Assembly (NCBI RefSeq): GCF_028712165.1
Contig: NZ_JAQTQR010000014.1
Location: 1 to 42,940, forward strand
DNA: 42,940 nucleotides
DNA from: Sulfuricurvum sp.
GTDB lineage: Bacteria > Campylobacterota > Campylobacteria > Campylobacterales > Sulfurimonadaceae
Reading direction: 5' to 3'
Part shown: one piece after another, positions 6,182-42,940 of the stretch
Position numbering within the stretch: the first letter of the stretch is position 1
Layout: each line of letters begins with the position of its first letter
The notes under the pieces: model-generated
The model's input: the letters and a program-made list of their open reading frames with translations, nothing else
Databases searched by the model: none
What the model was told of the DNA's origin: nothing
Position numbers and translations under genes: made by a program

Positions 6182-6296
6182 TCTCTCCTCTAGACCTGTG
6201 CAAGGGTATGGGCGGACATCGTGTCAGGGTAGGAATACAGCAGCACACCCGTTCATGTTTTGTGCCGCAGGTATCTGGTGGGGAGTCCTTTTTACC
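6182..6296 (+). ncRNA. ffs: Signal recognition particle 4.5S RNA
   Basis: The small bacterial SRP RNA binds Ffh and targets nascent membrane proteins to FtsY and SecYEG. The domain IV hairpin is complete: GTG stem (6221-6223), TCAGG (6224-6228), GTA stem, GGAA tetraloop (6232-6235), TAC stem, AGCAG (6239-6243) and CAC stem (6244-6246), the canonical symmetric and asymmetric loop arrangement. An outer helix is visible, for example ACCTG (6194-6198) with CAGGT (6268-6272), and a CTTTTT run near 6288 may mark the 3' end. Ends are approximate to about 10 nt. Confidence 0.9.
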
Positions 6297-13277: not shown

Positions 13278-13988
13278 ATGGGTCATAAAGTTAATCCTAT
13301 CGGACTTCGTCTCGGTATCAACCGCAACTGGGAATCTCGCTGGTTTCCTAACTTTAAAACAGCTGCGGTTTCATTGGGCGAAGATCACAAAATCCGTACC
13401 TATTTGAAAAAAGAACTCTACTATGCAGGTGTGAGCAACATCGTAATCGAACGTACTGCGAAACGTCTTCGCGTTACAATCATTGCAGCTCGTCCTGGTA
13501 TCATTATCGGTAAGAAAGGTTCTGACATTGAAAAAATCAAAGAATCTCTTCAAACCCTTATCGGTAAACCGGTAGCAGTTAACATTAAAGAAGAGAAAAA
13601 AGCACAGGCTTCTGCACAACTCGTTGCAGAAAACGTTGCAACTCAACTTGAAAAACGTGTAGCGTTCCGCCGCGCGATGAAAAAAGTTATGCAAAATGCA
13701 CAACGTGCAGGCGCTAAAGGTATTAAAGTTTCAGTTGCCGGCCGTCTTGGCGGTGCTGAGATCGCTCGTACTGAGTGGTATCTTGAAGGTCGCGTACCGT
13801 TGCATACACTTCGTGCAAAAATCGATTACGGTTTTGCTGAAGCGCACACCACTTACGGTGTAATCGGTATCAAAGTTTGGATTTTCAAAGGTGAGGTTCT
13901 CACTAAAGGTATCCAACCAGAAGCAAAAGAATCTAAAGAAGAGCGTGGCGAAGATCAACAACGTCGTCCACGACGAAAGGCTAACTAA
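13278..13988 (+). CDS. rpsC: 30S ribosomal protein S3
   Basis: S3 forms part of the mRNA entry channel helicase with S4 and S5. The 236-aa protein has the conserved start [14 protein letters not shown], a KH RNA-binding domain with the [17 protein letters not shown] loop near residues 74-90, and a C-terminal domain with [14 protein letters not shown] and [18 protein letters not shown]. The tail is Glu/Arg/Lys-rich and probably disordered. Confidence 0.98.
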
Positions 13989-13990
13989 TC

Positions 13991-14416
13991 ATGTTGATGC
14001 CTAAACGTACGAAATATCGTAAAATGATGAAAGGGCGTAACCGTGGTTACGCTACAAATGCTAACAAACTTGATTTCGGTTCTATCGGATTCAAAGCAAC
14101 GGAAGCGGGACGTATTAACTCTCGTCAAATCGAAGCGGCTCGTATTGCAGCAAACCGTCATATCAAACGTCAAGGTAAAATCTGGATCCGCGTGTTCCCG
14201 GCTAAACCATTGACTGCCAAACCACTTGAAGTGCGTATGGGTAAAGGTAAAGGTTCTGTTGACCAATGGGTAATGAACATCAAACCAGGCCGTATCATTT
14301 TTGAAATGGGTGGTGTTGAAGAGACTCTTGCACGTGAAGCATTAGCGCTTGCGATGCAAAAACTTCCGTTCAAAACCAAAATTGTAACTGCGGAGATGAG
14401 CAATGAAATATACTGA
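13991..14416 (+). CDS. rplP: 50S ribosomal protein L16
   Basis: L16 organises the A-site region of the 50S. The 141-aa protein begins [19 protein letters not shown], as is usual for the family, and carries [12 protein letters not shown] near residues 82-93. The first of two in-frame ATGs (13991) is chosen because most L16 proteins start M-L-x-P-K-R. It overlaps rpmC by 14 nt. Confidence 0.97.
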
Positions 14417-14588
14417 TTTGAACGACAAAACAGCTGCTGAACTTCAAGGGATGCTCAAAGAGAAAAAAATTGAGCTTTTCACTTTGAAAATTAAGCAAAA
14501 AATGATGCAATTGACTAACACGAGCGAACTTCGCACGGCGAAAAAAGACATTGCACGCATTAACACTGCTATGAACGCAGTGAAGTAA
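14403..14588 (+). CDS. rpmC: 50S ribosomal protein L29
   Basis: L29 is a small helical-hairpin protein beside the exit tunnel next to L23. The 61-aa protein has the helix [17 protein letters not shown] and the second helix ending [18 protein letters not shown]. It starts inside rplP with a 14-nt overlap, and a GGAGATGAGCA sequence serves as its ribosome site. Confidence 0.95.
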
Positions 14589-14598
14589 GGGCAGAGCT

Positions 14599-14850
14599 AT
14601 GACACATAAACGTGAAATTCAAGGTATCGTAGTTACAAAAGCAGGCGAAAAAACAGCAACTATCGTTGTTGAACGCCGTGTAATGCACCCACGTTACCAC
14701 AAAACGGTAAAACGTTTCAAAAAGTACATGATTCATGACGAAAACAACCAACTAAACATTGGTGATGAAGTGATCGCGATCGAGTGTCGTCCACTTTCTA
14801 AAAGTAAATCGTTCCGCCTTAAAACTCTTGTTAAAGGAGTGAACGTATGA
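14599..14850 (+). CDS. rpsQ: 30S ribosomal protein S17
   Basis: S17 is a primary 16S-binding OB-fold protein. The 83-aa protein contains the signature [20 protein letters not shown] at the N-terminus and [19 protein letters not shown] near residues 55-73. Its last four bases overlap the rplN start (ATGA), so the two are coupled. Confidence 0.97.
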
Positions 14851-15215
14851 TTCAAAGTTTTACTCGTTTAGCGGTAGCTGATAACACAGGTGCAAAAGAG
14901 ATCATGTGTATTAAGGTTCTTGGCGGTTCAAAACGTCGTTATGCAACAGTTGGCGATGTAATCATCGCTTCTGTTAAAAAAGCGGCTCCAACCGGTAAGA
15001 TCAAAAAAGGTCAAGTTGTAACAGCAGTAGTTGTTCGTACGAAAAAAGAAGTTCACCGTGAAAATGGTTCACTTATCCGTTTCGACGAAAATGCAGCAGT
15101 TATCCTTGATAAAAAACGTGAGCCAATCGGTACACGTATTTTCGGACCTGTAAGCCGTGAAGTTCGTTACGCAGGTTTCATGAAAATCGTATCACTTGCT
15201 CCAGAGGTTGTATGA
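14847..15215 (+). CDS. rplN: 50S ribosomal protein L14
   Basis: L14 is at the subunit interface, where RsfS binds in other bacteria. The 122-aa length is exactly that of the family. Visible blocks are [20 protein letters not shown] at 2-21 and the [20 protein letters not shown] block near 79-98, ending [10 protein letters not shown]. It overlaps rpsQ by 4 nt. Confidence 0.98.
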
Positions 15216-15445
15216 TGGCAAAATTTAATTTCAAAAAAGGCGACATTGTTGAAGTGATCGCCGGTGATGACAAAGGTACTAAAGCAGAATTGCTTCAAGT
15301 TATGCCTAAGAAAAACAAAGTAATCGTTAAAGGTGTTCGTATTGCTAAAAAAGCGATCAAACCTAGCGAGCAAAATCCACAAGGCGGATTCTTGAGTAAA
15401 GAAATGCCTGTAGATGCATCAAATGTCCGTAAAGTTGAGGCGTAA
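15215..15445 (+). CDS. rplX: 50S ribosomal protein L24
   Basis: L24 is an assembly initiator with a KOW motif: [20 protein letters not shown] near residues 4-23. The protein is 76 aa, shorter than the E. coli protein (104 aa) but normal for Campylobacterota. Two tandem ATGs (15212 and 15215) are possible. I chose the second because AGAGG is then 7 nt away. With the first, the gene would overlap rplN by 4 nt. Confidence 0.94.
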
Positions 15446-15447
15446 TC

Positions 15448-15993
15448 ATGGCACGACTAAAAGATAAATATTTAGCTCTTAAACCAGAGCTTCAAACAGC
15501 ACTTGGGATTGCAAATGTAATGCAAGTTCCAGTTTTGGAAAAAGTGATCATCTCTGTCGGTTGTGGTTTTGCTATGAAAGACAACAAATTGATCCAAAGT
15601 ATCCAAGATACTATCAGCAACATTGCAGGACAACGTGCATCCGTTGTTGTAGCTAAAAAATCGGTTGCAGGATTTAAAGTACGTGAAGGGATGCCGGTTG
15701 GTGTTAAAGTAACACTTCGCGGTGCTCAAATGTACGATTTCATGGACAAATTGATCTCTGTATCACTTCCTCGTGTTAAAGACTTCCGTGGTATTCCACG
15801 TAACGGTTTTGACGGTCGCGGTAATTACAACTTCGGTTTGACTGAGCAGTTGATTTTCCCGGAAGTTGATTACGATTCAATTATGCAAATCCACGGGATG
15901 AACATCACAGTGGTAACAAGCGCTACAGCAGATAAAGATGCATTCAAACTTCTTGAAATGCTCGGTATGCCGTTTGCTAAAGGGAGAGAATAA
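15448..15993 (+). CDS. rplE: 50S ribosomal protein L5
   Basis: L5 binds 5S rRNA and contacts the 30S head (bridge B1b). The 181-aa protein has [20 protein letters not shown] near 71-90 and the C-terminal block [19 protein letters not shown] near 129-147. Its stop shares one base with the rpsN start. Confidence 0.98.
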
Positions 15994-16178
15994 TGGCTAA
16001 AAAGTCAATGATCGCTAAAGCGGCGCGTACACCTAAATTTGCGGTTCGTGCTTATACTCGTTGTCAGATTTGCGGTCGTCCGCACTCTGTTATCAGCGAT
16101 TTCGGAATTTGTCGCGTTTGCTTCCGTAAAATGGCAAACGAAGGGTTAATCCCAGGCGTTAGAAAGTCTTCTTGGTAA
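15993..16178 (+). CDS. rpsN: 30S ribosomal protein S14, zinc-binding type
   Basis: The 61-aa protein is the short, zinc-ribbon form of S14: CQIC and CRVC provide the four Cys ligands, and [18 protein letters not shown] is the conserved end. The alternative, roughly 100-aa zinc-free form is absent from the cluster. A 78-nt gap with a small hairpin separates it from rpsH, the largest gap within the ribosomal cluster. Confidence 0.97.
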
Positions 16179-16187
16179 AAACACGGA

Positions 16188-16208
16188 GAGGGTGTTTATA
16201 ACTCCCTC
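16188..16208 (+). promoter_or_regulatory. Small hairpin in the rpsN-rpsH gap
   Basis: GAGGG (16188-16192) and CCCTC (16204-16208) can pair around an 11-nt loop. The following sequence GGCCTTTTACC has only a short T-run, so a full terminator is unlikely. It may be an attenuation or RNA-processing site between the two halves of the cluster. Confidence 0.35.
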
Positions 16209-16256
16209 GGCCTTTTACCTGGTAAGAAACTCCTAATGATTAGATAAGGAAAATAA

Positions 16257-16652
16257 ATGATTAATGATTTGATCGCGGATTCGTTGACTCGTATCCGTAA
16301 TGCTGCAATGCGCAGATTGGATGTAACAACTTTGGTTCACTCAAAAGTAGTAGAAGCAGTTGTTGCAATTTTGGCTGATAAAGGCTACATCGAAAGTTTT
16401 AATGTTGTTGAAGACGGCGTTAAAAAAACAATCAATGTAGTTCTAAAATACGACGACAAAGGTCGTACAGTTATTAATGAAGTAAAACGTGTCTCTAAAC
16501 CGGGACGTCGTGTTTACAAAGGCAAAGATGAGCTAAAACGTTTCAAAAACGGTTATGGTACCATCATCGTCAGCAGTTCAAAAGGGGTTCTTCCTAACGA
16601 TAAAGCATTCGAGCTTGGCGTTGGCGGTGAAGTCCTTTGTACAATTTGGTAA
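16257..16652 (+). CDS. rpsH: 30S ribosomal protein S8
   Basis: S8 is a primary binder of the central domain of 16S rRNA; in E. coli it also represses the spc operon by binding its mRNA. The 131-aa protein has [16 protein letters not shown] at the N-terminus and [20 protein letters not shown] in the C-terminal RNA-binding region. AAGGAAAATAA precedes the ATG. Confidence 0.97.
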
Positions 16653-16661
16653 GGAGATAAG

Positions 16662-17198
16662 ATGTCACGTATTGGAAAACTTCCTATTTCTGTCCCAACT
16701 GATGTAAAAGTAACTCTTGACGGAACTGTACTTACTTTCGTAAAAGGTACTACAACACAAACCTTGGATACTCTCGGTAACTGTGGTGTTGTTCTTGAAG
16801 ATAATACATTGACGTTTAGCACAAACTCTGACCAACGTACGGATCGCGCTTTCTGGGGTACATATCGTGCACTAGCAGCAAATATCGTTACCGGTTTGAC
16901 TGCAGGTTTTGAGAAAAAACTTGAGATCAACGGTGTTGGTTATCGTGCAGCGGTTGAAGGTGCTATTTTGAAACTTCAACTTGGATTTAGCCATGATATC
17001 AATTTCGATATCCCTGCAGGAATTACCATTGCTGTAGAGAAAAACGTTATCAGTATCAAAGGCGCTGACAAACAACAAGTTGGTCAAGTCGCTGCTGTAA
17101 TCCGATCATTCCGTCCACCTGAGCCTTATAAAGGTAAAGGTGTTAAATATACCGATGAGACTATCCTGCGTAAAGCCGGTAAGACATCTAAGAAATAA
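16662..17198 (+). CDS. rplF: 50S ribosomal protein L6
   Basis: L6 lies near the sarcin-ricin loop and factor-binding site. The 178-aa protein begins [16 protein letters not shown] and ends with the family signature [15 protein letters not shown] (near residues 151-165) followed by RKAGKT. AAGGAGATAAG is the ribosome site. Confidence 0.98.
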
Positions 17199-17209
17199 GG
17201 AGCGATGAT

Positions 17210-17566
17210 ATGACAGGTAAAACACTTAAAATTAAAGCGGCTAAGCGTACACAACGTAAACGCCGTATTCGCTCTAAAATTTCTGGATGCGCGACATTGC
17301 CTCGTGTCTCTGTTTTCCGTTCAAACCGTTACATCAGCGCGCAAGCGATCAATGATGAAACGGCTGTAACGGTAGCGGCGGTACACTCAAAAACTTTGGG
17401 TCTTAAAGCAAACATCGAAGGTGCCGAAAAAGCCGGTGCTGTGTTTGCACAAACCCTCAAAGATGCCGGTATTAACGAAATCACGTTCGATCGTAACGGG
17501 TTTTTGTATCACGGTGTCGTTAAAGCGTTTGCCGAAGCACTTCGTGCAAATGAAATTAAGTTTTAA
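17210..17566 (+). CDS. rplR: 50S ribosomal protein L18
   Basis: L18 binds 5S rRNA with L5 and L25. The 118-aa protein has the basic N-terminal RNA-binding stretch RTQRKRRIRSKISG and the conserved LPRVSVFRSNRYISAQ block near 30-45. The C-terminal FDRNGFLYHGVVKAFAEALR matches the family. Confidence 0.97.
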   Translation: MTGKTLKIKAAKRTQRKRRIRSKISGCATLPRVSVFRSNRYISAQAINDETAVTVAAVHSKTLGLKANIEGAEKAGAVFAQTLKDAGINEITFDRNGFLYHGVVKAFAEALRANEIKF

Positions 17567-17572
17567 GGGCTG

Positions 17573-18019
17573 ATGATGCAAGCGATTAACAGAGAAGAAT
17601 TTTCAGAAGCGATTGTAAACATCGGTCGTGTAACCAAAGTTGTAAAGGGTGGTAGACGTTTTCGTTTTACCGCTCTAGTAGTTGTAGGAAATAAAAAAGG
17701 AACCGTAGGTTACGGAGTCGGTAAAGCCAAAGAGGTTCCCGATGCTATCCGTAAAGCGGTTGACGAAGCGTTCAAAAATTTGACTGAAGTGAAGATCAAA
17801 GGGACTACCATTGCTCATGATATCGAAGTTAAATACAACGCAAGTCGTATCTTGCTAAAACCTGCATCTGAAGGTACAGGGGTTATCGCCGGTGGCGCTA
17901 CCCGTCCGGTACTTGAGCTTGCGGGAATCCAAGACATCTTAACGAAGTCTTTGGGTTCTAACAATCCAAACACCGTGGTACGTGCAACAATTGATGCACT
18001 ATCACGTATCAAAGGATAA
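17573..18019 (+). CDS. rpsE: 30S ribosomal protein S5
   Basis: S5 contributes to decoding accuracy and the mRNA entry helicase. The 148-aa protein has the dsRNA-binding motif [20 protein letters not shown] near 21-40 and [20 protein letters not shown] near 45-64. Two tandem ATGs occur at 17573 and 17576. No rpmD (L30) gene follows; rplO begins 3 nt after the stop. Confidence 0.98.
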
Positions 18020-18022
18020 GTT

Positions 18023-18421
18023 ATGGCATTAGAAAACCTTACTCCTGCTGAGGGTTCAACCCACAGTACAAAACGTCTTGGCCGCGGCCAAGGAAGTGGC
18101 CAAGGTAAAACTGCCGGTAAAGGTCACAAAGGACAAAAAGCGCGTAAAGGTTACAATGAAAAACGTAACTTTGAGGGTGGACAACAACCACTTGCACGCC
18201 GTTTGCCAAAAATCGGATTTACATCACGTGTTGTAAAACCGACAATTATCAATGTTGAAAAAGTAAAAGAGGTTGCAGCACTTTCGGAAATCACTATGGA
18301 GAGCATCCGTAGTGTACACCGATTGGCTAAATCGGTTACAAGTGTTAAACTTGTCGGCGCTAGCGCTAAAGATTTAGCATCTAAAATCAAAGATGAAAAC
18401 GTTACAACAACTGGTAACTAA
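18023..18421 (+). CDS. rplO: 50S ribosomal protein L15
   Basis: L15 is a late-assembly protein of the 50S. The 132-aa protein shows the glycine-rich N-terminal extension [20 protein letters not shown] near residues 20-39 and [15 protein letters not shown] near 52-66. Its last base is the first base of the secY start (TAATG), which couples the ribosomal genes to the translocon gene. Confidence 0.97.
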
Positions 18422-37760: not shown

Positions 37761-38330
37761 TCATCCATCCGTTCGCCCTGAGCCTGTCGAAGGGTAAACG
37801 ATCTCAAATACTTTTGCTTCTTCCCCGAATGAGTGGTAGAGATAAAGCTTGCGAGGCTTTGTCTCCCATTTTTTAAATCGCTGGGACGGCTTTTTAAGAT
37901 ACTCTTCGATAATTTTGACTTGTTCCTCTACACCTAATCCCAATAAGCGACATTCGAGCGGTTGTATTGTCCCTGTACGTATATCTTTTACATCCAAATC
38001 ATATTTGATGCAGGGTTCAAAAATCAGCCTCTTTTCCTCTTCATCAGAGATAATTTTTAATTCTGATGAGAGTCTATGTACTTGTTTGTCTATCGATACA
38101 TAAATCCGAAAGTAGATGCATTTGAGTGCAAAATACCCATTAGTGTCATAGAGGGAACTTTTAGTCTTGATCGTTTCAATCACATCATCAATAGTGTGGG
38201 ATTGTCCGACAAACGGGGCGATATTATCGCGGTCTTTTTTCAATCGGATAGAGGTTCCTCGCATGTCCGTAACGGTTCCGCTATTACCGCATTTGTGCAT
38301 AAGTTTGAAATCATAGTGTATCGTTGTCAT
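37761..38330 (-). CDS. Unrecognised 189-aa protein sharing the EVE-HNH promoter motif
   Basis: I do not recognise a family. The protein has no signal peptide or membrane segment. Short N-terminal features are HKCGNSGTVTDMRGTS and DRDNIAPFVGQSH; the centre is charged (SDEEEKRLIFEPCIKYDLD) and the end is rich in Lys and aromatic residues. The last 11 residues (YPSTGSGRTDG) are encoded by a dispersed palindromic repeat that also supplies the stop, so the original C-terminus was probably replaced. The ATG has an ideal AAGGAG site. Its promoter carries the same inverted-repeat operator as the HNH gene. Confidence 0.7.
   Translation of the reverse strand: MTTIHYDFKLMHKCGNSGTVTDMRGTSIRLKKDRDNIAPFVGQSHTIDDVIETIKTKSSLYDTNGYFALKCIYFRIYVSIDKQVHRLSSELKIISDEEEKRLIFEPCIKYDLDVKDIRTGTIQPLECRLLGLGVEEQVKIIEEYLKKPSQRFKKWETKPRKLYLYHSFGEEAKVFEIVYPSTGSGRTDG
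37770..37795 (-). repeat. Dispersed palindromic (REP-like) repeat, left copy
   Basis: On the minus strand it reads CCCTTCGACA-G-GCTCAGGG flanked by A and CGAACG. It differs by one base from 42163-42188, which lies in the opposite orientation. CCCT and AGGG can close a stem. It lies inside the 3' end of the 189-aa gene. Confidence 0.8.
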
Positions 38331-38348
38331 AGGTTACTCCTTGAAAGA

Positions 38349-38386
38349 AGTATAAAACAAGTGAATTACAAAGTTATGTTACTCAT
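38349..38386 (-). promoter_or_regulatory. Promoter/operator of the 189-aa gene
   Basis: Minus-strand -10 TATACT (38349-38354), 6 nt, half-site GTGAATTAC (38361-38369, as read on plus), an 8-nt spacer, then GTTACTCAT (38378-38386), a 6/9 match to the inverted half-site. It overlaps the end of the exonuclease gene and mirrors the site at 39858-39896. Confidence 0.6.
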
Positions 38387-38893
38387 CTTATTCAAAATTT
38401 CCAGCGTCTTGGTAACGTCGTAAATTGCGCTGTGATAGTGTGCCTCGTCAAACTCGATTTTATAGAATTTGCACGTTTCGATAAGCTTGGGATTTTTAGT
38501 ATTTCCCCGCGCGTCCAACGCTTTGACGTTGTGCTTATTCTCTTTCATGGTACAAAAATGGCGATCAAAACGCACCAGTTTAGCAATATGCCGAAGCTCG
38601 AAAGTGACGTTATGCGCCACTAACGTTTTTGCCCCTTTACAAAATTCGATAAACTCATAGTCATCGATAAAATACTCAGGATAATCCGCATTTGAGCGCA
38701 GTTTTTCGATCCGCTCGGGAGAGAGCTGATGGACGGCTAAGGCATGAGGGTTTACCTCGTATTCGGAGAAGTAGTAACGGTGAAACGTATCCGCGATCAC
38801 ATATGACCCGCCGACGTTTTTCACACGAAATGCGGCGACTTCGATCACATCATGAATGTTGGCGGAGTTGGTTTCGAAGTCTAGGATAATCAA
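38366..38893 (-). CDS. DEDDh-type 3'-5' exonuclease
   Basis: The 175-aa protein is a single RNase T/DnaQ-like exonuclease domain: motif I LDFETN with D5 and E7, motif II AHNVTFE and motif III HSAIYD with H154 and D159. The motif II Asp that normally follows Phe is Glu (E99), an unusual but chemically conservative change. Family enzymes degrade DNA or RNA 3' ends. It is 9 nt downstream of the EVE-HNH gene on the same strand and likely co-transcribed with it. Confidence 0.85.
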   Translation of the reverse strand: MIILDFETNSANIHDVIEVAAFRVKNVGGSYVIADTFHRYYFSEYEVNPHALAVHQLSPERIEKLRSNADYPEYFIDDYEFIEFCKGAKTLVAHNVTFELRHIAKLVRFDRHFCTMKENKHNVKALDARGNTKNPKLIETCKFYKIEFDEAHYHSAIYDVTKTLEILNKMSNITL

Positions 38894-38902
38894 TTGGCTC
38901 TC

Positions 38903-39835
38903 TTATTTATTAAGCATTTTTTTCATTTCATTGATTGTGTATGCAGGCTTTTGTTTATGAAGCATTGCATGACAATTCGGGCAAACGGGTATCAAATCTT
39001 TTTCAGGATCAACTTCATAATTTTCTGCAATACTCGATATTTCTCTTAGGTGGTGTACATGAATAAAATTCTTTCCAATCTCTCCATACGATTTTTCAAA
39101 ATCAAATTTACATATAGCACAGATATATCCATGTTTTTTTACACATTCTTGTCTTGCTTTTGGATTTCTTTCATAAGCATTGACTGTTATCTGTTTTTTT
39201 GCACCTTCAATTAATGTTTCTGCATCATTTTGATTGATCTCTTCAGGTATAAATTCTTCATACCCATTATTCATGATTAAATCATATAATTTTTGCGGAT
39301 ATTCACTCTCTAAAAATTTGTAAACTTTTCCATTGATTCCTAACGCATTGATCTTTTTTTCAAGTTCTGAAAATTCGGTTTGTCCTAAAACAAAGGGGTT
39401 GTCTTTTAAATTCTTAATGACTTTTAGCTTTATGTCTCCGTTATGATCTGCTTTTGAGATAATTTTACAGACCAAGTAAATTCCAACGGTCGGATACTTC
39501 GTAGTGGTATGAGTTGCTCCGTTATAATAAAAGACAACATCATCAATGTTGTCTTTCAATCCATGATGTACTTTTTCTTGCTTAAACTCATTACCATCAT
39601 TTGTATGATTAATAAATTCGTCCGTACCGTCGTTTTCCCATACACTCATAGACGCTTTGACTTGCCAAAAATTTATAGGTTTAGGAGTTTTTTTGCTCTT
39701 GTACAATTCTAGTTCATTGTCGATTTGTGCAAAGATCTCGGGGTGATTTTTACTTTTAATATCATCATAATTTTTTCCATCATCAATCCTTTTTTTACAC
39801 ATATTCAAGATTGCGTTCAAATCGCTTTGGTTCAT
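38903..39835 (-). CDS. EVE-like/HNH endonuclease (candidate modification-dependent restriction enzyme)
   Basis: The 310-aa protein appears to have two parts. Residues about 53-175 (NFWQVKASMSVW, DDVVFYYNGA, VGIYLVCKIISKAD) resemble an EVE/PUA-like modified-base reader. Residues about 228-309 are an HNH nuclease with zinc pairs C239/C242 and C285/C288, H261-H262 in HVHHL, and the CPNCHAMLH end. EVE-HNH fusions are known as modification-dependent restriction endonucleases. The EVE assignment is from pattern only. AAAGG precedes the ATG. A perfect inverted-repeat operator lies at its promoter. Confidence 0.75.
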   Translation of the reverse strand: MNQSDLNAILNMCKKRIDDGKNYDDIKSKNHPEIFAQIDNELELYKSKKTPKPINFWQVKASMSVWENDGTDEFINHTNDGNEFKQEKVHHGLKDNIDDVVFYYNGATHTTTKYPTVGIYLVCKIISKADHNGDIKLKVIKNLKDNPFVLGQTEFSELEKKINALGINGKVYKFLESEYPQKLYDLIMNNGYEEFIPEEINQNDAETLIEGAKKQITVNAYERNPKARQECVKKHGYICAICKFDFEKSYGEIGKNFIHVHHLREISSIAENYEVDPEKDLIPVCPNCHAMLHKQKPAYTINEMKKMLNK

Positions 39836-39857
39836 AGTTTAACCTTTTATTTTTTTA

Positions 39858-39896
39858 ATTATATTGCAAGTGAATTACATATATAGGTAATTCACT
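39858..39896 (-). promoter_or_regulatory. Promoter/operator of the EVE-HNH gene
   Basis: Minus-strand -10 TATAAT (39858-39863). After 6 nt comes the inverted repeat AGTGAATTAC-N8-GTAATTCACT (39869-39896, 10-bp perfect arms). The repeat covers the expected -35 region, so a bound regulator would block or recruit RNA polymerase. The ATG is 22 nt from the -10 box. Confidence 0.65.
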
Positions 39897-39902
39897 ACTA
39901 AA

Positions 39903-41150
39903 TTATTTATTTAATATATTCGTTATATTTTCATAATGAGATTCCAAATGTTCAGTAAAACTAATGATTTCTTTTGATAATCCAGTTGTTAATATATCAA
40001 ATTCTTTTTCATCAAATAGTTCATAAGTCAATTGTCTTTCTTGAAGTGTATAAAATCTAACTTTCGAAGAAATACTCATTTTCATTTCTTCTTGTATTTT
40101 TCTAATTTGATCATTTGTTCTTTGCTTTTCAGTGTTTATATTTAGGATAATAAAATCAATTACAATTTTATGTTTCTTTTGATCATAAACTACTTCTATT
40201 TCAACAATATAATTTTTAATATTTAATGGTCTTCGAATATAAAAACCAAATGGCACTCTAGCTTTACTATATCCTATACGAGCATTACTCAAATGGAAGG
40301 GGCATAAAGATTTATCTTCTTTCATAAATTCTTCTTTATATACAATAGAGTATTCATTTTTATTCATTGCTTTTAATAATTTATTTTTTACCGTTTGCCA
40401 AAAATCAATTTCTTTTTTAGCCCATAAAAGTGGATAACTTTTTGCTATAGAATCTATAGCCTTTATATCATTAACGCTATTGACCATCTTGTGTAAAGAA
40501 TCTTCCATTTTTTTATTCCTTTTGTCTGTTATTTTGTGAATTAAATTTTTATATTGAACAAGCCCTTCTCTCAAAGTTTGCTGATTACTTACTGTTTGAA
40601 TACACTGATCAATCCATTCATCTATATCATCGCGAAAAGATAATGTGTAGTAATCTGTACCTGCTATCAAATTCTTTTTACTATCATCTGAAGCATAATC
40701 TCCAAATTTTGTTAAATAAAACAGTTTGCTATCTTGAGCATGATTTTTTCGTTTTTTCAGCTCTTCGTTGTAATCTGATAATTGTTTATATTGATCTCCT
40801 GCATCAATCTTCATTTCTACACCAATAATAAATTTTTTAGTTTCAATAACAAAATCTATACGTCTATTTGCAGTAGTAGGGTCTTCCCTACTTACTCGAA
40901 TGATTTCGCCATAGTCAGTAAGTTTTAAAACATTTTCAATAAATAGTTTTAAGAATAAATCTTTTTTTCTATGACTTCCATGTGGACTCAATAGCTCATA
41001 AATAAATGTTGAATGTGTTTCAACCTCTTTTTTTTCAATTTGGAGAATCGAAAAAATATTAAAATGTGAACCATGTACAGCTTCTTCTTGCTCCGTTACA
41101 AGAACATTCTTTTTTATTTCATTGATTATTTCCGATATTTTTGCAGTCAT
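39903..41150 (-). CDS. PD-(D/E)XK nuclease, PDDEXK_4-like
   Basis: The 415-aa protein shows the PDDEXK_4 pattern: HFNIFSILQIEKKEVETHS near residues 29-47, FIYELLSPHGSH and LFLKLFIENVL, then the active-site set D99 (RRIDF), E112 and K114 (VEMK), followed by DAGDQYKQLSDY with conserved Gln residues. YLTKFG follows. The remaining 250 residues are unassigned and may bind target or partner. The gene is visibly AT-rich compared with its neighbours, suggesting transfer. It starts 4 nt inside the WYL gene's end (ATGA). Confidence 0.82.
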   Translation of the reverse strand: MTAKISEIINEIKKNVLVTEQEEAVHGSHFNIFSILQIEKKEVETHSTFIYELLSPHGSHRKKDLFLKLFIENVLKLTDYGEIIRVSREDPTTANRRIDFVIETKKFIIGVEMKIDAGDQYKQLSDYNEELKKRKNHAQDSKLFYLTKFGDYASDDSKKNLIAGTDYYTLSFRDDIDEWIDQCIQTVSNQQTLREGLVQYKNLIHKITDKRNKKMEDSLHKMVNSVNDIKAIDSIAKSYPLLWAKKEIDFWQTVKNKLLKAMNKNEYSIVYKEEFMKEDKSLCPFHLSNARIGYSKARVPFGFYIRRPLNIKNYIVEIEVVYDQKKHKIVIDFIILNINTEKQRTNDQIRKIQEEMKMSISSKVRFYTLQERQLTYELFDEKEFDILTTGLSKEIISFTEHLESHYENITNILNK

Positions 41151-42088
41151 TTAAGCCTTTCAATATACTCATTCAGATTTTTATATACTATCTCTCCTAA
41201 CGTATCAGGTCGAATTACTCTAACATACGGAACATACCGTTGAATCGTCGGAATGATCTCCATAAAATCAGTGATATAAAGCTCAATGTCGCAAGAGCCG
41301 TCATGGTACGTTTTTAGAATACGCTGAGTTTTAGAGATCGCTTTACGTTTGAAATACTTGGCAACTTTTGCATCCAAAAACAGCTCAATCGAAAACGGTT
41401 CGACATGCGGTTCATAAAAAGCATTGATCGCGTTATCAAATCCCTCTATAATCGACTCATCAAACGTAAACTCGGTATCCAGTAGCGTAATGTCAGAAAT
41501 GGTGTTGAGGTGATAGCGTCTGATCTCAGAGTATGCTACATCGTAGTTGATTAGATACCAAAACCCTTCAAGGTTTAAAATCTTCAAAGGATAAAGATTT
41601 CTCGACTTATTGTTGTAGGTACACGCTATCTCCCTATGGTGGGTAATCGCATTTTTGATTTGTATGATTTCAGTTTTGAAATCATCGATTTTTTCGATCA
41701 TAGTCTCTTGATAAAAGCTGTTAGATAAGCTCTCTTCGAATTTTTGAAACAGCGCGTCGGTTTGTGTCGCAAACCCTTCATCACTGAACTTATCTTTGCT
41801 TTTGGCTTTGAGCAATGCGATTACTGCGAGTTCGTCACTGTTCAGTAGAGTGCTTGCCAAAAAGTTGCTTTTGGCACAATAACATTTGAGGCTGTAGTCA
41901 TAGTAGATCATTCCATCATTGAACAAGGGGATGAGATACTCTTTAAAATCGAGTTGAATGATTCTTTTGGTGAGGTTTAGCTGTTCAGCTAATTCGGGGG
42001 TTGAAAGTTTGGCTCCGGAGGAGAGGAGGGTTAATAGGTACGATAGTCTTTTACTTCTGTTAGTTTTTAAACTATCCACCCTTAACAA
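41147..42088 (-). CDS. WYL-domain transcriptional regulator
   Basis: The 313-aa protein has an N-terminal winged helix-turn-helix (about residues 13-55: RLSYLLTLLSSGAKLSTPEL then LAEQLNLTKRIIQLDFKEY), and a WYL domain with FWYLINYD near 176-183 followed by IRRYHLNTISDITLLD. WYL proteins sense nucleic-acid ligands and often control defence genes. The start is TTG at 42088, with AGG sites just upstream; a GTG three codons later is an alternative. It overlaps the nuclease gene by 4 nt and is its first co-transcribed gene. Confidence 0.87.
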   Translation of the reverse strand: MLRVDSLKTNRSKRLSYLLTLLSSGAKLSTPELAEQLNLTKRIIQLDFKEYLIPLFNDGMIYYDYSLKCYCAKSNFLASTLLNSDELAVIALLKAKSKDKFSDEGFATQTDALFQKFEESLSNSFYQETMIEKIDDFKTEIIQIKNAITHHREIACTYNNKSRNLYPLKILNLEGFWYLINYDVAYSEIRRYHLNTISDITLLDTEFTFDESIIEGFDNAINAFYEPHVEPFSIELFLDAKVAKYFKRKAISKTQRILKTYHDGSCDIELYITDFMEIIPTIQRYVPYVRVIRPDTLGEIVYKNLNEYIERLK

Positions 42089-42095
42089 ACCTACC

Positions 42096-42113
42096 TACTA
42101 ATATTCTGTAGTA
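42096..42113. promoter_or_regulatory. Short inverted repeat upstream of the WYL gene
   Basis: TACTA-N8-TAGTA, 7 nt upstream of the TTG start, has the same 8-nt spacing as the operators downstream but a different half-site. It may be an autoregulatory site or chance. Confidence 0.3.
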
Positions 42114-42155
42114 TATTCTAACATTTATTTATGATTTTAAAAGTCAAAGTGTAAG

Positions 42156-42233
42156 CCCGTTAACCCTTCGACAAGCTCAGGGCGAACGAGCTCTCGCGTC
42201 ATGGTTCGACATGCTCACCACGAACGAAACGGG
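42156..42233 (+). repeat. Dispersed palindromic (REP-like) double repeat, right copy
   Basis: Two units: CCCTTCGACA-A-GCTCAGGG (42164-42182) with flanking CGAACG, and TGGTTCGACA-T-GCTCACCA (42202-42220) with flanking CGAACG. The stems covary (CCCT/AGGG against TGGT/ACCA) while the loop core TCGACA-N-GCTC is kept. CCCGTT and AACGGG bracket the pair. It lies between the WYL gene and the DUF3373-type gene. Confidence 0.8.
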
Positions 42234-42237
42234 AAGT

Positions 42238-42940
42238 TTAAAATTTATATCGCAAATACGCCCGAATATCTTGGGCTTTATCGACTACCGCACTGGCTAA
42301 ATCGGTATTGGCCGGAATATCACTGATTTTCATCGGAGTTCCGCTTTGACTTCCGAAGAAACCATTGCTTCCGCTGTAGTCATAATTGATGTAGGTATAT
42401 CGGAGCTGAAAACTGAGTCCCGTGGTAAGCGGCTCGGTGAAATAAAGCTCGTATGCATCTCCGCGAGCGGCAATTTTTGAGCCGATAGCGGTGTCTTCCC
42501 CATAGGTAAAGGATCTCCAGTATTGACTGCCGTGATTGAATTCCACTCCCCATTTCCCTTTTTCACTTATGAGTGAGGGCATTTGGGTACCGATCCAATA
42601 GCTGTAGCCGGTTTCACTCTCAGGTGAGCCTAACATCGCTTTGCCGCTATCCGGATCGGTTTTGGACATGGCGCCGCTTGCAAATATCGTCGTTTGACCC
42701 AAATAATCGCCATAGCCCTGTATTCCGTGTAATGCTACGAATGCCGAAGCAAGATGGAGCGAACCGACACTTTGCAAAGACGGATCGTAATTTGCGGGGT
42801 TAAAGTTTCCGAATTGATCGAATCCCGCATTGGTAATATCGATCAGATTATCGGCATGGGTATATTGAAGTTCCGTTTCGATGTTTTTGCTGTGATAGGG
42901 GACGATATTTACAGCATACATGCGGATGTTTCCGGTATCG
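42238..42940 (-). CDS. DUF3373-type outer-membrane protein (partial, N-terminus beyond right edge)
   Basis: The frame stays open to the window edge, so the true start is outside; 233 residues are visible. Alternating amphipathic strands (LSFQLRYTYINYDYSGS near the end) and the final RAYLRYKF with terminal Phe indicate an outer-membrane beta barrel. The sequence resembles DUF3373 proteins of sulfur-oxidising Campylobacterota, which are about twice this length. Transported substrate unknown. Confidence 0.78.
   Translation of the reverse strand, partial: DTGNIRMYAVNIVPYHSKNIETELQYTHADNLIDITNAGFDQFGNFNPANYDPSLQSVGSLHLASAFVALHGIQGYGDYLGQTTIFASGAMSKTDPDSGKAMLGSPESETGYSYWIGTQMPSLISEKGKWGVEFNHGSQYWRSFTYGEDTAIGSKIAARGDAYELYFTEPLTTGLSFQLRYTYINYDYSGSNGFFGSQSGTPMKISDIPANTDLASAVVDKAQDIRAYLRYKF

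What the first reader, a model, noticed from the sequence alone, without database searches (positions are those of the whole stretch)
37761..42240. Candidate WYL-regulated nuclease defence cassette
Five minus-strand genes lie between two inverted copies of a dispersed repeat: WYL regulator, PDDEXK_4 nuclease, EVE-like/HNH endonuclease, DEDDh exonuclease and an unrecognised 189-aa protein. Neighbouring genes are core metabolism. WYL and the nuclease are coupled by ATGA; the exonuclease is 9 nt after the HNH gene. The nuclease gene is AT-rich compared with its flanks. Each family is found in defence loci; the combination is one I do not recognise as a described system.
Basis: partly seen in the sequence, partly recalled or inferred. 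Interest (0 to 1): 0.8.

Follow-up and report, generated by a model that had tools for sequence, protein, structure and literature searches.

The report
Restriction cassette with swappable nuclease
In three sulfur-bacterium genomes the same set of genes (a switch protein, a reader that probably recognises chemically modified DNA, and an unknown protein) holds a different gene, in two cases a DNA-cutting enzyme, in the same slot, which looks like a phage-defence cassette whose blade is exchanged while the handle stays.

Summary
The five genes are as described: WYL/WCX regulator, PDDEXK_4 nuclease, a protein with HNH C-terminus, DEDDh exonuclease, orphan 189-aa protein. Two Sulfuricurvum genomes carry the cassette too. 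WYL (89% identical), the 190-aa N-terminal part of the HNH protein (78-83%) and the orphan (75-79%) keep their order. The gene behind WYL differs each time: PDDEXK_4, another PDDEXK_4 at 36%, or an unrelated short protein. HNH tail and exonuclease are missing from both relatives. The 190-aa part is EVE-like through relatives; two relatives in other genera are EVE-PDDEXK_4 fusions, one directly behind a WYL gene. Two near-palindromes, before the EVE-like and orphan genes, occur only in the cassette, each followed by a -10-like box. Best reading: a WYL-controlled, modification-dependent (type IV-like) restriction cassette with an EVE reader and exchangeable nuclease. It is not a fixed five-gene system: the exonuclease is a dispensable, widespread stand-alone gene and the flanking repeats are genome-wide. 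Building blocks (EVE-HNH, EVE-PD-(D/E)XK, WYL regulators of defence loci) are known; the in-trans arrangement with a swapped nuclease slot and an orphan partner is a variant I did not find described. No function was tested.

The parts
41147..42088 (-). WYL/WCX transcriptional regulator (HTH-WYL-WCX), 313 aa, TTG start
   Evidence: Pfam WYL 4.4e-9, WCX 5.2e-6; 89% identical in G014 and G078; relatives precede other defence genes
39903..41150 (-). PDDEXK_4 nuclease, 415 aa; variable slot of the cassette
   Evidence: PF14281 3e-33; PADLOC PDC-S26 2e-68; D99, E112, K114, Q123 invariant in the 8-sequence alignment; replaced in G078 (36%) and G014 (unrelated)
39870..39895 (.). P1: palindrome upstream of the EVE-like gene, followed by a -10-like TATAAT; candidate operator
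   Evidence: homology between the cassettes resumes at 39892
39266..39835 (-). EVE-like reader domain (residues 1-190 of the 310-aa protein); a free-standing 190-aa gene in G014 and G078
   Evidence: 78-83% identity to the 190-aa proteins; hhalign to the G143 EVE-PDDEXK_4 fusion prob 97.6, E 4.6e-12; that fusion hits PF01878 above its cut-off
38903..39265 (-). HNH nuclease tail (residues 191-310), present only in the window copy
   Evidence: PF01844 3e-5; similarity to 6ghc, 5-methylcytosine-specific restriction enzyme A, 5e-4; absent in G014, G078
38366..38893 (-). DEDDh exonuclease, 175 aa; dispensable member
   Evidence: RNase_T 6e-12; missing in G014 and G078, where a short probable scar remains; stand-alone elsewhere in 41/151 genomes
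38361..38385 (.). P2: second near-palindrome, upstream of the 189-aa gene, followed by a -10-like TATACT; candidate operator
37761..38330 (-). Orphan 189-aa protein; known only from the three Sulfuricurvum cassettes; residues 1-30 nearly invariant
   Evidence: in residues 1-30, 14 synonymous against 1 non-synonymous changed codons versus G078
42095..42111 (.). Imperfect inverted repeat CTACTAATATTCTGTAG upstream of WYL; possible WYL autoregulatory site
   Evidence: read in the sequence; conserved in G078, not in G014
37770..37800 (+). Dispersed repeat, left copy; overlaps the 3' end of the 189-aa ORF
42158..42188 (-). Dispersed repeat, right copy, inverted

Best explanation
A WYL-regulated, modification-dependent (type IV-like) restriction cassette built as a chassis with an exchangeable nuclease. 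The WYL/WCX protein keeps the cassette off until infection or DNA damage (inferred). The EVE-like protein reads a modified base in incoming phage DNA (inferred from the domain). The DEDDh exonuclease would degrade the cut DNA and is optional. The orphan 189-aa protein is a conserved partner of unknown activity. Two cassette-specific palindromes probably are operators for the EVE and orphan transcripts. Shown here: domain identities, conserved order in three genomes, replacement of the slot gene, EVE-PDDEXK_4 fusions in relatives, cassette-specific palindromes with -10-like boxes. Inferred: defence, modified-DNA targeting, regulation, and cooperation in trans.
For: Conserved WYL, EVE-like and orphan genes in order in G000, G014, G078, with G078 at another chromosomal site, so the set moves together. 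Slot gene exchanged. EVE-HNH_2 proteins in G138 and G337. Catalytic residues kept: PDDEXK motif invariant, HNH motif intact, DEDDh motif residues invariant in 30 relatives. A WYL gene lies within about 2 kb in 8 of 30 PDDEXK_4 loci. Related WYL genes precede a CBASS-type patatin effector, a Tin-like protein and PADLOC candidate families. The paired palindromes occur only in the three cassette genomes of eleven searched. Literature: EVE-PD(D/E)XK and EVE-HNH are predicted type IV enzymes (PMC7641849); VcaM4I EVE-HNH binds 5mC/5hmC DNA and restricts 5hmC phage (PMC7897488); the WYL repressor BrxR binds inverted-repeat sites in a defence island (PMC9122601).
Against: The window's EVE-like region does not hit Pfam EVE directly and the AlphaFold model was too poor to test the fold (pLDDT 43). 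WYL+PDDEXK_4 occurs without EVE in G134 and G069, and EVE-HNH_2 occurs without an adjacent WYL in G138 and G337, so each may work alone. P1 and P2 would let EVE and the orphan be expressed separately from the nuclease. The G014 slot protein is not detectably a nuclease. No direct evidence of phage restriction.
Confidence: 0.48

Rival explanations
1. Accretion in a defence hotspot: WYL+PDDEXK_4 is one system, the EVE-HNH protein is an independent type IV enzyme, DEDDh and the orphan are separate passengers; they only share a site.
For: WYL+PDDEXK_4 stands alone in G134, G069; EVE-HNH_2 alone in G138, G337; DEDDh alone in 41 genomes; base composition differs between the genes, 26% to 44% GC; separate promoter-like sites before EVE and orphan.
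Against: Chassis order kept at two chromosomal sites; the same palindrome in front of both EVE and orphan and nowhere else in the genomes; EVE-PDDEXK_4 fusion with WYL upstream.
Confidence: 0.3
2. Abortive-infection cassette: the slot nuclease is a suicide effector, WYL is its repressor and infection sensor, and EVE/orphan proteins act as neutralisers or triggers.
For: PDDEXK_4 is a PADLOC single-gene defence candidate (PDC-S26); related WYL genes precede effector genes such as patatin; no methyltransferase for self-protection in the cassette.
Against: EVE fused to PDDEXK_4 in relatives points to targeting rather than neutralisation. Type IV enzymes need no methyltransferase either.
Confidence: 0.12
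3. The EVE-like protein reads modified RNA and the nucleases act on RNA or on host nucleic acid; the cassette is a stress-response unit and not a defence system.
For: EVE/PUA-superfamily domains also bind RNA (PMC7641849); WYL regulators also respond to DNA damage (abstract of PMC10693628).
Against: Patchy presence (3 of the sampled genomes), slot replacement and HNH/PDDEXK_4 fusions are typical of defence.
Confidence: 0.05

Closest known systems
EVE-HNH modification-dependent endonucleases (VcaM4I; PMC7897488)
   Same: Reader domain of EVE type followed by an HNH nuclease in one chain, as in the window's 310-aa protein
EVE-PD(D/E)XK predicted type IV enzymes (Bell et al. 2020, PMC7641849)
   Same: Same two domain classes; single-chain EVE-PDDEXK_4 relatives found here in G143 and G460
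BrxR/CapW-type WYL regulators of defence islands (PMC9122601, PMC9122589)
   Same: HTH-WYL-WCX protein at the head of a putative defence locus; inverted repeats at promoters, more than one site per locus
   Different: No BREX or CBASS genes; the two conserved palindromes lie before downstream genes and do not match the repeat before WYL
PADLOC candidate PDC-S26 (PDDEXK_4)
   Same: Full-length match of the slot nuclease (2e-68)
   Different: The 'S' label is, to my knowledge, for single-gene candidates; here it is one interchangeable part of a multi-gene cassette. Neither that name nor the Pfam name or accession occurs in the papers library

Membership tests
EVE-HNH modification-dependent endonuclease (VcaM4I type) | EVE/PUA-fold modification reader | tested here: inconclusive
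   No direct PF01878 hit; homology to a relative that does hit it; AlphaFold model unusable
EVE-HNH modification-dependent endonuclease (VcaM4I type) | C-terminal HNH nuclease with intact motif | tested here: met
   PF01844 above cut-off; HH...N...H and two CxxC pairs aligned
EVE-HNH modification-dependent endonuclease (VcaM4I type) | Cuts 5mC/5hmC DNA | not testable with these tools
   needs biochemistry
EVE-HNH modification-dependent endonuclease (VcaM4I type) | Reader and nuclease in one chain (asked of the cassette family, not of the window copy alone) | tested here: not met
   met in the window copy, but G014 and G078 readers end at residue 190 without HNH
PDDEXK_4 / PDC-S26 | PF14281 domain over the curated cut-off with D...ExK...Q active site | tested here: met
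   115.8 bits against 22.3; D99, E112, K114, Q123 invariant
BrxR/CapW WYL regulator | HTH + WYL + WCX architecture | tested here: met
   WYL and WCX over cut-off; HTH_11 only below cut-off, 17.5 against 25 bits
BrxR/CapW WYL regulator | Inverted-repeat operators in the controlled locus, bound by the regulator | tested here: inconclusive
   Conserved cassette-only palindromes P1, P2; which protein binds them is untested
BREX or CBASS | pglX/pglZ/brxC, or CD-NTase with effector | tested here: not met
   None of the five genes matches such a family
   HNH tail and DEDDh absent in both relatives; nuclease replaced

The most novel reading that the evidence does not exclude
A modular type IV restriction system in which a constant, WYL-controlled EVE reader plus an obligate orphan partner works in trans with whichever nuclease is delivered into a fixed slot between the WYL 3' end and a cassette-specific palindrome, so that effector swapping at the slot is a built-in feature.
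Probability: 0.2. Interest if true: 0.72.

Novelty: new variant of a known kind. Interest (0 to 1): 0.5.

Why it matters
Modification-dependent enzymes that need no NTP are described as one-chain fusions of a reader and a nuclease (PMC7897488). It would also give the uncharacterised PDDEXK_4/PDC-S26 nucleases, found in 66 of 397 genomes of the phylum sampled, a possible targeting partner.

Tried and rejected
(1) Flanking repeats as mobility ends: rejected as a requirement, since the repeat is genome-wide and no copy lies near the G078 cassette. (2) DEDDh as a core member: rejected, being missing in both relatives and stand-alone in 41/151 genomes. At first I read ~20 nt at the 3' end of its gap in G014/G078 as a remnant of the gene; most of that is the conserved P2 site, so only the 5' part (TGATTATCYTAGAY, coding MIILD) supports a deletion scar. 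By my rough estimate that match has a chance of order 1e-4, so the scar is probable, not proven. (3) P1/P2 as RNA hairpins: the P1 of G078 does not fold (z +0.46) though its sequence is conserved, so a DNA site is more likely. (4) G014 slot protein as a PDDEXK_4: hhalign finds nothing (probability 0.1%); only a D...ExK-like motif by eye. It also spans two contig ends joined by me on a 20-nt overlap with one mismatch. (5) AlphaFold for the orphan and the EVE-HNH protein: pLDDT 48 and 43, not used for fold searches. (6) Viral contigs, plasmids and phages: no orphan relative in any of the three; no EVE-region relative in viral contigs; plasmid hits to the 310-aa protein are mainly to its HNH part. 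(7) sigma-70 promoter scan: no excess over shuffles, so the -10-like boxes rest on conservation only.
Full report
WHAT IS THERE. Five minus-strand ORFs lie at 37761-42088 exactly as described. Pfam finds WYL+WCX, PDDEXK_4, HNH (only in residues 239-295 of the 310-aa protein) and RNase_T/DEDDh; the 189-aa protein matches nothing. PADLOC calls the nuclease PDC-S26 at 2e-68. The nuclease gene is 26% GC, the EVE part 32%, the HNH tail 31%, WYL 38%, orphan 40%, DEDDh 44%; the window is 42%.

RELATIVES. Among 151 genomes of the same bacterial family, the orphan occurs in three, all one genus. The genome-contig scan names the other two as Sulfuricurvum sp. PD_MW2 (G014) and Sulfuricurvum sp. LH_M14 (G078). 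In G078 the order is WYL (89%) - PDDEXK_4 (36%) - 190-aa reader (78%, no HNH) - orphan (75%), and none of the genes around it matches the window's genes, so it sits at another chromosomal place. In G014 the orphan and reader lie next to the same peroxiredoxin gene as in the window, and WYL lies next to the same porin-like gene on another contig; the two contig ends overlap by 20 nt with one mismatch. Reading across that join gives a 179-aa slot protein without detectable similarity to PDDEXK_4. It carries a VDFVI...ALELK stretch that could be a PD-(D/E)XK core, by eye only.

THE SLOT. At DNA level the window and G014 match at 42188-41197 (89%), 39892-39278 (87%) and 38391-37702 (81%), with nothing detectable between; G078 gives nearly the same second and third blocks and a first block running into the nuclease gene.

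PALINDROMES. P1 (39870-39895) and P2 (38361-38385) share the pattern GTRAATTAC-N7..8-GTWAYTYA. In the window's genome this pattern occurs only at these two places. A slightly stricter pattern finds two sites each in G014 and G078, both in the cassette, and none in eight genomes without it; in the window it finds P1, while window P2 differs by one letter. Aligned on the coding strand, P1 and P2 of all three genomes share the palindrome followed by a -10-like TATAAT/TATACT/TAAAAT at constant distance and then the start codon. They look like operators at internal promoters. The P1 of G078 does not form a stable RNA hairpin, which speaks for a DNA site. Which protein binds them is unknown. The inverted repeat before WYL (42095-42111) has another sequence and is kept in G078 only.

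Window residues 1-190 do not reach Pfam EVE alone. The window protein aligns with a G143 protein (blastp 8e-12; hhalign 97.6%, E 4.6e-12) that hits PF01878 above its cut-off and PDDEXK_4 at 1.9e-17. G460, in another bacterial family, has the same EVE-PDDEXK_4 order in a complete 563-aa protein. G143's fusion gene starts 83 nt behind a WYL gene; it is cut by the contig end. G138 and G337 have the same domain fused to an HNH_2-type nuclease. The domain therefore recurs next to nucleases: in cis with PDDEXK_4, HNH_2 or HNH, and in trans with the slot genes here. EVE-PD(D/E)XK and EVE-HNH are recognised predicted type IV enzyme classes (PMC7641849), and VcaM4I is the studied EVE-HNH example (PMC7897488). 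The structure prediction here was too poor to confirm the fold.

WYL AND PDDEXK_4. WYL is adjacent to PDDEXK_4 in G134 and G069 without EVE or orphan. In the phylum, 8 of 30 PDDEXK_4 loci have a WYL gene within about 2 kb. With about 0.4 such WYL genes per genome (62 matches in 151 genomes), chance would give well under 1%, although several of these loci are close relatives. Other WYL genes of this type precede a CBASS-type patatin effector, a Tin-like protein and PADLOC candidate families. This is the behaviour of a general defence-locus regulator such as BrxR (PMC9122601).

DEDDh. All 30 relatives inspected keep the motif residues (DFE; HNxxFE; HSAxYD). The gene is found in 41 of 151 genomes, and none of the other loci inspected carries the cassette genes. 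The similarity at the far end is mostly the P2 site and does not count.

ORPHAN. The 189-aa protein is known only from the three cassettes. It is a real gene: in residues 1-30 window and G078 differ by 14 synonymous and 1 non-synonymous codons, while residues 31-90 vary freely (23 non-synonymous). Its last ~10 residues in the window come from the dispersed repeat.

HOW IT MOST LIKELY WORKS. WYL represses; infection relieves it; the EVE reader binds modified phage DNA; the slot nuclease, and in this copy the HNH tail, cut; DEDDh trims. Only the anatomy is shown. The strongest rival is plain accretion of independent defence genes at one site. Against it stand the shared palindromes, the common presence at a second chromosomal site and the EVE-PDDEXK_4 fusion behind WYL. 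For it stand the solitary occurrences of each part.

VERDICT. Observation confirmed; interpretation partly supported; new variant of a known kind; interest 0.5. The three-genome base is small, and one of the three relies on a contig join.

Noticed in passing
L095:6918-9254 (G078:C5): The same G078 genome has a second WYL-associated PDDEXK_4 gene (298 aa), separated from the WYL gene by a 150-aa ORF and placed in front of it.
   Followed up: partly
   Followed up: partly
window 37770-37800, 42158-42188: Dispersed repeat with core CCTTCGACARGCTCAGG, 12 copies in this genome and 42 in congener G051; it extends the reading frame of a neighbouring gene by about ten codons (PSTGSGRTDG).
   Followed up: partly
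L037, L038, L040, L042-L044 (G126, G106, G084, G098, G080, G062): One WYL type (33-34% identical to the window's) recurs in many genomes of the genus in front of different downstream genes, suggesting a second family of WYL-headed variable loci.
   Followed up: no
window 6187-6284: Bacterial small SRP RNA gene (Rfam RF00169, 58 bits); no tRNA in the window.
   Followed up: no
window 13988-18421: About 4.4 kb without any ORF of 200 aa or more and without Rfam or tRNA matches.
   Followed up: no
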